Shown: piece after piece, positions 24,208 through 28,645 of the stretch | Numbering within the stretch: position 1 is the stretch's first letter | Layout of the letters: each line of letters begins with the position of its first letter | Source: Aurantiacibacter spongiae | GTDB lineage: Bacteria; Pseudomonadota; Alphaproteobacteria; Sphingomonadales; Sphingomonadaceae | DNA length: 64,000 nucleotides | Assembly: GCF_003815535.1 (NCBI RefSeq) | Contig: NZ_RPFZ01000001.1 | Coordinates: 1,240,001-1,304,000 of the forward strand | Reading direction: 5' to 3' | Program-made: the position numbers and the translations under genes | Notes under the pieces: generated by a model | Told to the model about the DNA's origin: nothing | Database searches by the model: none | Seen by the model: the letters and a program-made list of their open reading frames with translations, nothing else

Positions 24208-26163
24208 TCAGCGCGTGCGCGCCGCCAGCAACCGGTCGAGACCCTGCTCGCCATCGCCTGTCGGCTCGATCCACGGGAAGCGCAGGCCGCCGTGATAGTC
24301 GATGGCGATGGTGTCGTAGCGCTCGCCCCGCTTGACCAGCAGTTCGATCGGTTCGCGCGAATCCCTGGCTGCCGTCACCGCGTCCCTGATCGTATCGGGC
24401 GCGAATTCCTCGCCGTTGACGGCCACGATCTCCGCCCCGTTGACGATGCCGGCCGCGAAGGCCGGCCCGTCCCACAGCGTCGAGACGACCGTGCCGCTGA
24501 CCGACAGGCTCATGCCCAGCGAATAGAACAGGTCGACATAGTCGCCATTGTCCATCCGGCCCTTGGCGTAGGGGTTGGGCGTGTCCTTCCATACCAGTTC
24601 GTAGCCGGCCATCGCGAGGCCGCGCGTCGGCGCGGGCTGATTCGGCTGGCGCAGCCGGGTGTCGAGGAAGCCGGCCCAGTCATACGGATAGACCCGGTTC
24701 AGCGTCGCGACGACCTCGTCGAAATCGTAGGTCAGCTCGCCCCAGTCGCCGTCGGTCTTGCCGAAGAAATCCCGGGCGAAATCGTCCAGCCCCTTCGCCC
24801 CGCCGGTGCCATCGCGGATGATCTGGTCCGCTTCCAGCCAGGTCAGCGCCCCCTCGACGTAATAGTCCTCGCTGCGCTGGAGCGAGGAATAGGGCAGCGG
24901 GCGCCGCGAATTGACGATGGGGTCGTAGGTCGTGTCCTGCACGCTGCGCCACGCGCGGCCCGGCTGGCCCTCGGAATAGTTGGCGACCGCGTTGGCGAAC
25001 ATGCCGAGCACCGTGTCCTTCTGCTGCAGGCCGGATCGGGCCGCCAGCACCCAGCCCCAGAACTGCGTCTGCCCTTCGTACACCCACAGCAGCGTGTCCT
25101 GCATGGGCGTGCGGTAGTCGGGCGTCCACAATCCCTCGGGCCGGCGGAACTTGCCGTTCCAGCTATGGACGAGCTCATGGGAAACGACGTTGTGATCCCA
25201 GTCCATCGCGTCCCAGTCGGTAAGGGCGGTGGGTTCGTACTGGTTTTCCGCCGAGCGGTGATGTTCGAGGCCGATGCCCCCCATCGTGTCGGTCATGGCG
25301 AGGAGAATGTCGTAATGGTCGAAATGCCGCGCGCCGAACAGCGCGTCGGCTTCTTCCACCAGGTTTTCGAAACGGGCGAGGTTCTCGGGCGCGAGGTCGA
25401 GGTAGTCCGGCTCGTCGGCGATGGCGTCGAGCTGCACGTCCTCGCCCAGCGACCACTGCTGCGAATGTGCGCCGGCGAAGATCGGCGAATCGACCAGCGT
25501 TTCGTAATCGACGTCGTCGAAACGCACCGTGTCGCCGCGCCGCGTCTGCCCGTCGAGCGCGGTGAACACGCGCCAGCCTTCGGGCACCTTGACGCTCGGC
25601 GCGATGGCGATGCGGCGCACGTAATGGCCTTCGGGATAAAGGCTCATCTTCTCCCATTGCAGGTTGAGCATCTCCTGCGTCATGGTCACGCGCCCCTCGC
25701 TGCCGGTGACGGGCGAGGTGTGGATGAAGCTGGCCACCACCTCGCGCGCGCTCGGCGGCACCTCGACCACAAGGCGATAGACGTCGAGCGGGTCGCGGAA
25801 CCAGTTGAGTTCCTCTCCGCCCGCGGTGAAGCGGATGTTCGAAAGCAGGTTGATCGGCCCGCGCGCGGCGTGGTTGCCGGGCAGCCACTCGGGAAACAGC
25901 AAGGCCAGCTGCGTCGTGCCGCGGGCGACGGGGATCGTCTCGGTCACGCGGTAGAGATGGCGGCGCGTATCGGTGGCGTCGATGTCGAGCCGGATGGTGC
26001 CGCCCGGATAGGCCACGTCGCGCGGCAGCGGGGTCGCGTCGTCCAGTTGCGGCGCAACCGGCGCGGAATTGGCGTCGGGCCGGATTCCGGCCTGCTGGGC
26101 CAGCGCGGCAGTGGAGGAAAGGAGAGCGACGGAAAGCGCGATCGGCGCGAGGATGAACTTCAT
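24208..26163 (-). CDS. M61 family metallopeptidase with PDZ domain
   Basis: A 651-aa protein from the ATG at 26163, which opens a signal peptide (MKFILAPIALSVALLSSTAALAQ). The catalytic zinc motif is HELVH in NVVSHELVHSWNGKFR (around residue 328), followed by WVYEGQTQFWG with the third zinc ligand Glu. A PDZ domain lies near the C-terminus (SGTVVSTLWDGPAFAAGIVNGAEIVAVNGEEF). M61 enzymes of this type are glycyl aminopeptidases, active in the periplasm. It is divergent from hisS. Confidence 0.92.
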   Translation of the reverse strand: MKFILAPIALSVALLSSTAALAQQAGIRPDANSAPVAPQLDDATPLPRDVAYPGGTIRLDIDATDTRRHLYRVTETIPVARGTTQLALLFPEWLPGNHAARGPINLLSNIRFTAGGEELNWFRDPLDVYRLVVEVPPSAREVVASFIHTSPVTGSEGRVTMTQEMLNLQWEKMSLYPEGHYVRRIAIAPSVKVPEGWRVFTALDGQTRRGDTVRFDDVDYETLVDSPIFAGAHSQQWSLGEDVQLDAIADEPDYLDLAPENLARFENLVEEADALFGARHFDHYDILLAMTDTMGGIGLEHHRSAENQYEPTALTDWDAMDWDHNVVSHELVHSWNGKFRRPEGLWTPDYRTPMQDTLLWVYEGQTQFWGWVLAARSGLQQKDTVLGMFANAVANYSEGQPGRAWRSVQDTTYDPIVNSRRPLPYSSLQRSEDYYVEGALTWLEADQIIRDGTGGAKGLDDFARDFFGKTDGDWGELTYDFDEVVATLNRVYPYDWAGFLDTRLRQPNQPAPTRGLAMAGYELVWKDTPNPYAKGRMDNGDYVDLFYSLGMSLSVSGTVVSTLWDGPAFAAGIVNGAEIVAVNGEEFAPDTIRDAVTAARDSREPIELLVKRGERYDTIAIDYHGGLRFPWIEPTGDGEQGLDRLLAARTR

Positions 26164-26243: not shown

Positions 26244-27581
26244 ATGAGCAAGAGCAACACGCCACAGGCCATTCGCGGCACGCAGGACATCTTCGGCGCG
26301 GACGCGGAAAGCTTCGCCTTCATCGTCGAGACGTTCGAACGCGTGCGCCGGCTGTACCGCTTTCGCCGCGTCGAAATGCCGGTGTTCGAGCGGACCGAGG
26401 TGTTCGCCCGGTCCATCGGCGAGACGACCGACATCGTCTCCAAGGAAATGTATTCGTTCGAGGATCGCGGCGGGGACTCGCTGACGCTGCGCCCCGAATT
26501 CACCGCCGGGATCGCGCGCGCCTTCGTGACGAATGGCTGGCAGCAGCACGCCCCGCTGAAGGTGGCGACGCATGGCCCGCTGTTCCGCTACGAACGTCCG
26601 CAGAAGGGCCGCTATCGCCAGTTCCACCAGATCGACGCGGAGATCATCGGCGCCGCCGAGCCGCAGGCGGACGTGGAGCTGCTGGCGATGGCCGACCAGT
26701 TGCTGAAGGAACTGGGTATCGAGGGCGTGACGCTGCACCTCAACACGCTGGGCGATGCCGACAGCCGCGATGCCTGGCGCGCGGCGCTGGTCGAGTACTT
26801 CTCCGGCGTGCGCGAGAAGCTGAGCGAGGATTCGCAAGGGCGGCTGGAGAAGAACCCGCTGCGGATTCTCGATTCGAAGGACCCGCGCGACCGCGAATTC
26901 GTGGCCGGTGCCCCCCGGATCGACCAGTTCCTGTCCGACGAGGCCCGCGCCTTCTTCGACGCGGTGACCGGCGGGCTGGACGCGGCGGGCGTGAAATGGA
27001 CCCGCGCGGAAAGTTTGGTGAGGGGGCTCGACTACTACCGCCACACGGCATTCGAATTCATTCCCGACGAGGGCTCGGCAGCGGCCGAGGCGCTGGGGTC
27101 GCAAAGCACGATCCTCGGCGGCGGCCGCTACGACGGGCTGATGGAGTCGCTGGGTGGTGCGTCGACGCCGGCGGTCGGCTGGGCCGCCGGGATTGAGCGG
27201 CTGGCTATGTTGGTGCCAGCCGCCAAGCTACGCAATTATCAAGAAGTCGTGGGTGTAATTGCCGAGACCCCTGAAGCGGCGGCTGTAGCACAGGAAATTT
27301 CAACCTATTTGCGATCAAAGAACTTACAGGTAGACCAACTCTACAGCGGTCGTTCGAACAAGGTGCTTAAAAAGCTCCGCGACCGTGGTGTAACGACCGC
27401 ACTTTTCGTTGCCGCACCACCTTTCTCGCGTTTCAAGGCGACCATCAATATCAAGCGTTTTCGTGGCTTCAGGCATGATACCGAAAAGGTTTTTGTCGAA
27501 CGCTTCGCGAGCAAATACGAGTTGACGCTTGACCCGCAGGTCGACGGTTTCTCTTACGATTTCGGTCTCGTCGACGAATGA
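26244..27581 (+). CDS. hisS: histidyl-tRNA synthetase with a compositionally foreign C-terminus
   Basis: A 445-aa class II synthetase. The catalytic core is normal: [11 protein letters not shown], motif 2 [18 protein letters not shown], the HisA loop [15 protein letters not shown] and motif 3 GGGRYDGL with [12 protein letters not shown]. From about residue 320 the DNA changes abruptly: GC falls from about 65-70 % to about 50 % and rare codons such as TTA, GTA, TCA and CGA appear. The tail still carries [11 protein letters not shown], an anticodon-binding-domain pattern, but then [17 protein letters not shown], which I do not recognise in standard HisRS. It attaches histidine to tRNA(His). It overlaps prfA by ATGA. 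Confidence 0.9.
27205..27575 (+). other. compositional break inside hisS
   Basis: Hand counts over five 60-base lines from 27241 to 27540 give 53, 45, 57, 47 and 53 % GC, while the hisS core and prfA on either side are near 65-70 %. The break coincides with the boundary of the anticodon-binding domain and ends at the prfA start. It looks like replacement of one domain by imported DNA without disturbing the reading frame or the downstream overlap. Confidence 0.7.
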
Positions 27582-28645
27582 CCATCCCAGCCGAACGCCT
27601 TCGCCAGATCGCCAACCGCTTCGCCGAGCTCGAGGCGCGCATGGCGAGCGGGCAGCTGGAGGGCGAGGAATTCGTCGCCGCCAGCCGCGACTACGCCGAA
27701 CTGGAACCGGTGGCGAAGGTCGCCGCCGAAGTCTCCGCCATGCGCGAGGAGATCGCGGGGCTCGAGGACATGCTCGCCGACCCGGAGATGCGCGGAATGG
27801 CGGAGGAGGAACTCGCTGCCATCCGCAAGGCGCTTCCCGAGGCCGAGCGCCGTCTCGCGCTCGCCATGCTGCCGCGCGATGCGGCAGACGCGCGGCCCGC
27901 CATGCTCGAAATCCGCGCCGGCACCGGCGGCGACGAGGCGGCGCTGTTCGCTGGCGACCTTTATCGCATGTACGAGAAATACGCCGCCGAGCAGGGCTGG
28001 CGGGTGGAACCGGTCAGTGTCGCGGCGGCCGATGTCGGCGGATACAAGGAGATCGTCGCCAACGTTACCGGCACCGGCGTGTTCGCCAGGCTCAAGTTCG
28101 AAAGCGGCGTCCACCGCGTGCAGCGCGTACCCGTCACCGAGAGTGGCGGGCGCATCCATACCAGCGCCGCGACCGTCGCCGTCCTCCCCGAACCGACCGA
28201 GGTCGATGTCTCGATTGACGAGAATGACCTCAGGATCGACATCTACCGCTCCAGCGGGGCGGGCGGCCAGCACGTCAACACCACCGACAGCGCGGTTCGC
28301 ATCACCCACGTGCCCACCGGCATCGTCGTGGCGATGCAGGACGAGCGCAGCCAGCACAAGAACCGCGACAAGGCGATGAAGGTGCTGCGCGCTCGCCTCT
28401 ACGAAAGGCGGCGCGAGGAAGCGCACGGAGCAGAGGCGGAGGCGCGCCGCGCGATGGTCGGCAGCGGCGACCGCTCCGAACGCATCCGTACCTACAATTT
28501 CCCGCAGGGGCGCGTGACCGATCACCGCATCGGCCTGACGCTGCACAAGCTGCCTGAAATTGTCGCCGGGCCGGGGCTTGGCGAACTGGTCGACGCGCTC
28601 ATCGCCGAGGACGAGGCGAAGCGGCTCGCGGCGATGGCGGATTGA
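27578..28645 (+). CDS. prfA: peptide chain release factor 1
   Basis: A 355-aa RF1. It has the codon-recognition tripeptide PVT in [25 protein letters not shown] (RF1 has PxT; RF2 has SPF) and the universal GGQ in [17 protein letters not shown]. It ends translation at UAA and UAG. Its GGQ glutamine is the substrate of PrmC, encoded next. It overlaps hisS upstream and prmC downstream by four bases each, so the three form one translational unit. Confidence 0.97.

What the first reader, a model, noticed from the sequence alone, without database searches (positions are those of the whole stretch)
27205..27581. hisS carries a C-terminal domain of foreign composition
The catalytic core of HisRS is ordinary for this genome, but at about residue 320, just after motif 3, GC falls from about 65-70 % to about 50 % and codons rare elsewhere in the window (TTA, GTA, TCA, CGA) become common. 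The switch ends at the prfA overlap. The tail retains an anticodon-binding pattern ([11 protein letters not shown]) but has an unfamiliar end ([17 protein letters not shown]). This looks like an in-frame domain replacement in an essential synthetase. It may be linked to altered tRNA(His) recognition, resistance to an inhibitor or escape from a nuclease.
Basis: partly seen in the sequence, partly recalled or inferred. Interest (0 to 1): 0.7.

Follow-up and report, generated by a model that had tools for sequence, protein, structure and literature searches.

The report
Swapped tail domain in histidyl-tRNA synthetase
In one family of bacteria the tail of an essential protein-making enzyme, the part that should grip the tRNA anticodon, appears to have been replaced again and again between species while the rest of the enzyme and the tRNA stayed the same; why is unknown, and it could mark a hidden arms race.

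Summary
hisS (26244-27581) drops from 67.7 % to 51.2 % GC after motif 3, and the tail is the lowest-GC 375-bp stretch of the window. It is not a one-off. In 106 distinct HisRS of the window's family, cores are conserved but tails are mostly unalignable. Some species with 97-98 % identical cores carry tails as different as shuffled sequence. In several close pairs, silent sites of the tail are saturated while those of the core and prfA (and the upstream M61 gene where held) show a recent split. I conclude that the tail, bounded by motif 3 and the prfA start, is repeatedly replaced as a block. Outside this family nearly all Alphaproteobacteria surveyed have a tail that fits the family profile. 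ProRS in the same genus is normal. tRNA(His) keeps G-1, C73 and an identical anticodon arm in 30 of 30 genus genomes read, so altered tRNA(His) identity is not supported. The tail still models as a class IIa anticodon-binding fold. No phage or plasmid carrier was found. The driver is unproven; escape from a ligand of this domain is my leading guess.

The parts
26244..27203 (+). hisS catalytic core (residues 1-320, motifs 1-3), ordinary for the genome
   Evidence: TIGR00442 429.7 bits, cut-off 286.75; the seven nearest cores are 91-92 % identical
27162..27227 (+). upstream anchor: motif 3 region ending [13 protein letters not shown], conserved in relatives; the swap begins just after it
   Evidence: GC3 change point at 27228
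27204..27578 (+). replaced C-terminal (anticodon-binding) domain, residues 321-445, GC 51 %
27578..27581 (+). ATGA overlap of the hisS stop and the prfA start; downstream edge of the swapped block
27578..28645 (+). prfA, downstream anchor, used as a control for vertical descent
24208..26163 (-). M61-family peptidase gene upstream of hisS (start placed by me at the MKFIL methionine; name from the annotated relative), second control for vertical descent

Best explanation
The 3' end of hisS in Sphingomonadaceae is a site of recurrent allelic replacement. Recombination between the hisS-prfA loci of different sphingomonads, using the conserved motif 3 DNA on one side and the prfA start on the other, exchanges the anticodon-binding domain as a block and leaves core, operon and neighbours in place (block replacement is supported by the silent-site test; homologous recombination and sphingomonad donors are inferred). 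The replaced domain keeps the class IIa anticodon-binding fold (model) and can change because histidine identity rests mainly on G-1:C73, read by the unchanged core (literature plus constant tRNA here). The window's tail is such an import, recent enough to keep foreign codon usage (inferred). What keeps many deep tail alleles in circulation is unproven; I think most likely negative frequency-dependent selection by something that binds this domain, such as a phage protein or a toxin (about 0.4), with tolerated near-neutral exchange close behind.
For: The 52 pairs with cores 95 % identical or more have a median tail identity of 37 %, the lowest tenth at 24 % or below; shuffled tails give a median of 21 %. 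Fourfold-site mismatch, order M61 / core / tail / prfA: L107-L099 0.24 / 0.19 / 0.65 / 0.19; L038-L020 0.18 / 0.23 / 0.75 / 0.24; L040-L036 0.31 / 0.28 / 0.81 / 0.15 with cores 99 % identical (12-20 tail sites each); tail saturation is 0.70. In the four pairs that share a tail at a core mismatch under 0.25, the tail mismatch is 0.27 against 0.21. In the shared tails that I read dN/dS is low, e.g. 0.07 and 0.17. The divergence sits between the [11 protein letters not shown] region and the hisS stop in seven pairs; two controls with shared tails lack it. Tail distances correlate 0.12-0.25 with core and prfA distances, core pieces with whole prfA 0.60-0.74. Orphan tails (24) have a GC3 deficit of 0.26, tails with a close relative (28) 0.02; rho -0.58, p 1e-10 over 106. 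ProRS is full length in 37 of 40 genus genomes, own included, the others of these 72-80 % identical.
Against: No donor of the window's tail was found: best matches are 38 % over 96 residues (G314) and 33 % over 60 (G230), in two other genera. Cross-genus tail pairs are silent-site saturated or nearly so, so recent transfers between fetched loci are not seen. Tail identity in close pairs runs from 0.20 to 0.97 without two clean peaks. In the alignable subset the tail tree needs 3 genus changes against 1-2 for core and prfA, so much of the common tail type is inherited. Tails evolve faster than cores where shared (dN about 4-fold in 20 pairs chosen for like tails), and at core mismatches of 0.25-0.6 even shared tails have more silent mismatch than the core (0.48 against 0.35, 0.59 against 0.46). 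Not all unlike tails are saturated (L015-L004 0.36 of 11 sites, L012-L004 0.38 of 13). The rank test has noisy controls: rank over 5 in 79 of 103 for the tail, but also in 36 for whole prfA, 40-53 for prfA pieces and 47 for one core piece against another. Lower GC3 is also expected of fast-evolving sequence. In E. coli the anticodon matters: a CUA anticodon costs about 20-fold (PMC3875453, passage), which speaks against easy tolerance. No carrier was found. Nothing shows selection by an antagonist.
Confidence: 0.72

Rival explanations
1. No exchange: the anticodon-binding domain is under relaxed constraint in this family and simply evolves very fast in place, losing GC3 as it does.
For: Tail identity varies continuously; dN in shared tails is about 4 times that of the core; the common tail type largely follows genus; silent mismatch of shared tails exceeds that of the core at larger distances; tRNA(His) is constant, so the domain may matter little.
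Against: Silent sites are at saturation in the tail while core, prfA and M61 silent sites show a recent split in the same pairs; the closest shared tails have low dN/dS and silent divergence near that of the core; nearest tails are mostly not in nearest relatives.
Confidence: 0.17
2. Near-neutral exchange: recombination is frequent everywhere, and only here is a loosely constrained domain flanked by conserved anchors, so divergent tails are imported without any benefit.
For: Conserved flanks; lesser role of the anticodon in histidine identity (PMC9976931, passages); constant tRNA.
Against: Neutral alleles should be no older than the rest of the locus, yet tail alleles are far deeper than core or prfA alleles; the closest shared tails have low dN/dS; the anticodon matters in E. 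coli.
Confidence: 0.35
3. A mobile element inserts at the hisS 3' end and supplies replacement tails, as some phages do for other 3' gene ends (recalled); the tails are scars.
For: Low GC3 of orphan tails; in-frame replacement with preserved operon.
Against: prfA follows within 433 bp in 109 of 110 loci, the last being cut off after 84 bases; the 45 gaps over 60 bp hold no tail remnants; no tail was found in phages, plasmids or viral contigs for the tails tried.
Confidence: 0.06
4. The tail carries a lineage-specific second role (binding a partner protein or RNA, regulation of hisS) and co-diversifies with that partner.
For: Tails vary in length from 92 to 147 residues, some with extensions beyond the fold; low dN/dS within the closest tail pairs.
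Against: No partner was looked for genome-wide; the neighbouring genes are conserved where compared.
Confidence: 0.15

Closest known systems
Bacterial histidyl-tRNA synthetase (TIGR00442) with canonical HGTP_anticodon C-terminal domain
   Same: Core, motifs, single copy; fold of the tail by model
   Different: Window tail not recognised by PF03129; the domain is recurrently replaced between species of one family
Alphaproteobacterial HisRS/tRNA(His) co-divergence (loss of G-1, A73; PMC3937112 and PMC9976931, passages read)
   Same: Also a change in the HisRS-tRNA(His) pair in Alphaproteobacteria linked to lateral transfer
   Different: There the enzyme and the tRNA changed together; here the tRNA keeps G-1:C73 and only the anticodon-binding domain is swapped
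Hypervariable loci exchanged between conserved flanks, such as O-antigen genes or restriction specificity domains (recalled, from no call)
   Same: Deep alleles, discordant with the species, often low GC, bounded by conserved anchors
   Different: Those face phages or DNA directly; here it is a domain of an essential translation enzyme with a constant RNA ligand

Membership tests
Histidyl-tRNA synthetase (TIGR00442 equivalog) | Score over the curated cut-off | tested here: met
   429.7 against 286.75 bits; match ends at profile position 387 of 406
Histidyl-tRNA synthetase (TIGR00442 equivalog) | Only HisRS gene of the genome | tested here: met
   one full hit in G000; the second hit is weak and partial, E 0.001, 23 % over residues 23-167
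HGTP_anticodon domain (PF03129) | Sequence match of the tail to the Pfam profile | tested here: not met
   no match for the window up to E 10; 16 of 40 family tails match at E 0.1 or better
HGTP_anticodon domain (PF03129) | alpha/beta anticodon-binding fold of class IIa synthetases | tested here: inconclusive
G-1-lacking alphaproteobacterial HisRS/tRNA(His) type | tRNA(His) without encoded G-1 and with A73 | tested here: not met
   G-1, C73 and CCA encoded in the own tRNA(His); G-1 and C73 in 30 of 30 genus genomes read, own included
Mobile element using the hisS 3' end as an attachment site | element or remnant next to hisS | tested here: not met
   prfA adjacent in the window and within 433 bp in 109 of 110 loci, the other cut off; no tail remnants in 45 gaps

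The most novel reading that the evidence does not exclude
The HisRS anticodon-binding domain of sphingomonads is a polymorphic target in an unrecognised arms race: a widespread phage protein, toxin or competitor molecule binds this domain, and rare tail alleles are favoured, giving trans-species polymorphism in a universal translation enzyme whose own tRNA ligand has not changed.
Probability: 0.33. Interest if true: 0.88.

Novelty: new variant of a known kind. Interest (0 to 1): 0.68.

Why it matters
Aminoacyl-tRNA synthetases are usually regarded as slowly evolving enzymes whose anticodon-binding domains co-evolve with their tRNA (recalled). Here one such domain is exchanged between species with a fixed tRNA. 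That makes directly testable how much of HisRS specificity needs the domain, and it points to a possible undiscovered molecule that targets HisRS. It also warns against using full-length HisRS of this family in phylogenies. I saw no report of it in the listings of nine full-text searches of the open-access library (at most the first 12-20 hits of each were listed); subscription papers and preprints were not searchable.

Tried and rejected
Altered tRNA(His): rejected for the acceptor end and anticodon arm. Two IUPAC patterns for tRNA(His) failed (0 of 1 genome; 0 of 31 genomes); both asked for TTGTGAT, while the genus has TTGTGGT. A covariance search plus ARAGORN found the gene. Shufflon or silent tail cassettes: the window tail has one copy in its own genome. 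Phage, plasmid or virus carrier: no match for the window tail, the L037 tail (82, 84, 85) or the L078 tail (83 viral, 86 plasmids; phages not tried); other tails were not tried. Whole HisRS in plasmids gave 94 records, 15 listed; I opened only H1, which lies in a chromosome-like neighbourhood. The six HisRS-like viral contigs match within query residues 8-326, that is the core only, and were not followed. Weak library hits of the tail (T6PP E 0.07; DUF3144 E 0.01 and ILI bHLH E 0.2) are below their cut-offs and judged chance. The full-length AlphaFold model is poor in the core (pLDDT under 50 at 42-126) and was not used. Intergenic gaps as tail remnants: no hit at E 0.01 of 110 tails in 45 gaps.

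Sampling limits: the 110 loci are 30 unnamed ones of the window's genus, own included (the best of the 60 genomes with a match; 7 genus and 23 order genomes were not fetched), and the best 80 of 570 named relatives, so they are biased to cores like the window's. Four duplicates were dropped, 3 more loci for short or missing sequence, and 13 of 69 for lack of a genus label or prfA. M61 was held for only 50 loci. At low tail identity the alignments behind the silent-site counts are themselves doubtful and rest on few sites. The counts were made by eye, that from a truncated list. The donor of the window tail, strain-level variation and any antagonist could not be tested.

Full report
The window lies in a 2.86-Mb genome (G000:C1:1240001-1304000). 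Its genus group g1 contains genomes whose HisRS, from 60 residues before the junction to the end, is identical to those of Aurantiacibacter xanthus, A. suaedae and A. rhizosphaerae (L008 = L034, L022 = L044, L023 = L037), so I take the organism to be an Aurantiacibacter (Sphingomonadales).

Observation. hisS runs from 26244 to 27581 and overlaps prfA by 4 nt. GC falls from 0.677 to 0.512, GC3 from 0.89 to 0.56, with a GC3 change point at codon 329. No other 375-bp stretch of the 64 kb is as GC-poor.

Not a single case. The tail after GIERL is 92-147 residues long and on average has a GC3 of 0.64-0.69 per 20-codon bin against 0.78-0.84 in the core. Among 52 pairs with cores at least 95 % identical the median tail identity is 37 %; the lowest, such as L009-L010, L104-L111 and L105-L109 (cores 97.5-97.8 %, tails 22-24 %), are at the level of shuffled sequence (median 21 %, 95th percentile 27 %). 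For the window itself no tail in the set is more than 32 % identical. In 396 genomes of the order, own included, two others match its tail: G314 (38 % over 96 residues, E 4.5e-12) and, weakly, G230 (33 % over 60, E 2e-4), both in other genera; none of the other 39 genomes of its own genus does.

Replacement rather than fast evolution. The silent-site test is the strongest evidence. In the pairs L107-L099 (Novosphingobium), L038-L020 (the window's genus) and L040-L036 (Citromicrobium) the upstream M61 gene, the HisRS core and prfA have fourfold-site mismatches of 0.15-0.31, while the tail has 0.65-0.81; tail saturation is 0.70. Over 172 pairs with cores of 93 % or more, the median tail mismatch is 0.71 for tails under 35 % identical (85 pairs; core 0.43, prfA 0.44), 0.67 for 35-60 % (67 pairs; 0.42, 0.41) and 0.52 for 60 % or more (20 pairs; 0.38, 0.37). 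The four closest pairs that share a tail have a tail mismatch of 0.27 against 0.21 in the core; at larger distances shared tails exceed the core more (0.48 against 0.35 in 17 pairs, 0.59 against 0.46 in 13), partly because tails saturate higher. dN/dS of the closest shared tails is low (0.07 in L070-L072, 0.17 in L085-L089). Edges are sharp: in seven pairs with unlike tails the last 300 bp of the core and the first 300 bp of prfA are mostly 0.8-1.0 identical in 30-bp steps (lowest 0.67) while the last 63 nt of the tail are 0.22-0.59; in two control pairs with like tails they are 0.98.

Tail distances barely follow core or prfA distances (Spearman 0.12-0.25, against 0.60-0.74 for core pieces with whole prfA). 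The nearest tail is a median 22nd in core order, against 2-6 for prfA pieces (103 loci); it ranks below fifth in 79 of 103, but so do prfA pieces in 40-53, whole prfA in 36, and one core piece against another in 47. Further results against: in the alignable tail subset (56 loci, 34 labelled) the tail tree needs 3 changes between Aurantiacibacter and Novosphingobium where core, core piece and prfA piece need 1, 2 and 1, so the common tail type is partly inherited; and tail identity in close pairs is continuous rather than two-peaked.

Composition. Tails with no relative in the set (best identity under 0.45; 24) have a median GC3 deficit of 0.26, tails with a relative of 0.7 or more (28) of 0.02; rho -0.58 over 106. 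This fits recent import followed by adjustment, but fast-evolving sequence could also have lower GC3.

How widespread. Order survey with TIGR00442 (397 genomes; counted by eye in a truncated list): in the window's family f1, 87 of 336 genomes have a listed match that reaches profile position 402 or more, in the other families 55 of 61 (two of the 61 have no match). Both kinds are listed within g1, g23, g24, g36 and g48. Class survey (144 genomes): the three f1 genomes end at 381-387; of the listed HisRS over the cut-off from other families only one (G518, 379) ends before position 396; five genomes have no match or none over the cut-off. So the swapping looks like a trait of one family. Canonical tails in Novosphingobium (L074, L080, L090, L095), a Sphingomonadales MAG (L092) and Croceicoccus (L101) suggest that the canonical type is ancestral (inference). 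The control ProRS, which has a PF03129 anticodon-binding domain, aligns over its full length in 37 of 40 genus genomes, own included, the others of these at 72-80 %; two more are split and one has none.

Ligand. The genome's tRNA(His) (L131:1501-1577) is preceded by an encoded G-1 and has C73 and CCA. In 30 of 30 genus genomes read, own included, G-1, C73 and the anticodon arm are identical; only T-arm positions and one acceptor pair vary (these 30 are the best matches of 40 genomes). Published work says that Sphingomonadales keep the normal G-1/C73 type and calls the anticodon the minor determinant in a Thermus structure, though it matters in E. coli (PMC3937112, PMC9976931 and PMC3875453, passages read). 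Hence tail diversity is not co-evolution with the tRNA.

Mechanism. Supported: block replacement of the domain between conserved anchors. Inferred: homologous recombination between sphingomonad hisS-prfA loci. No mobile carrier was found for three tails tried, no tail remnants lie beside prfA and no second tail copy is in the genome. Why: neutral exchange would not by itself keep tail alleles much older than the flanking alleles, so I lean to selection for rare tails by a molecule that binds this domain, but no such molecule is known to me and none was tested. Near-neutral tolerance is almost as likely.

Noticed in passing
hisS-prfA gaps of 45 loci (e.g. L027, L045, L054): Gaps of 70-433 bp often hold palindromes of the form CCTGAACTTGTTTCAGG ... 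CTGAAACAAGTTCAG or CCCGGACTTGATCCGGGG, which look like REP-type elements (name recalled).
   Followed up: partly
L184 6001-8393 (NZ_CP155751.1): Sphingomonas parapaucimobilis YK209 carries hisS-prfA-prmC with M61 peptidase and DUF4167 neighbours on a 425-kb record called a plasmid; either a chromid with essential genes or a mislabelled chromosome piece.
   Followed up: no
L131 1501-1577 and the genus genomes: tRNA(His) anticodon loop is TTGTGGT (G37) rather than TTGTGAT; a pattern with TTGTGAT was absent from all 31 order genomes searched.
   Followed up: partly
27170-27183 and 27586-27599: A 14-nt inverted repeat (93 %) flanks the swapped tail: GGCGGTCGGCTGGG in motif 3 and CCCAGCCGAACGCC at the prfA start; probably chance.
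   Followed up: no
tails of L009, L019, L041, L049, L050, L055: These tails are 132-147 residues long against 92-105 for most, with ends that differ from locus to locus.
   Followed up: no
L178-L183: Six IMG/VR viral contigs encode distant relatives of the HisRS core (31-42 % identity).
   Followed up: no
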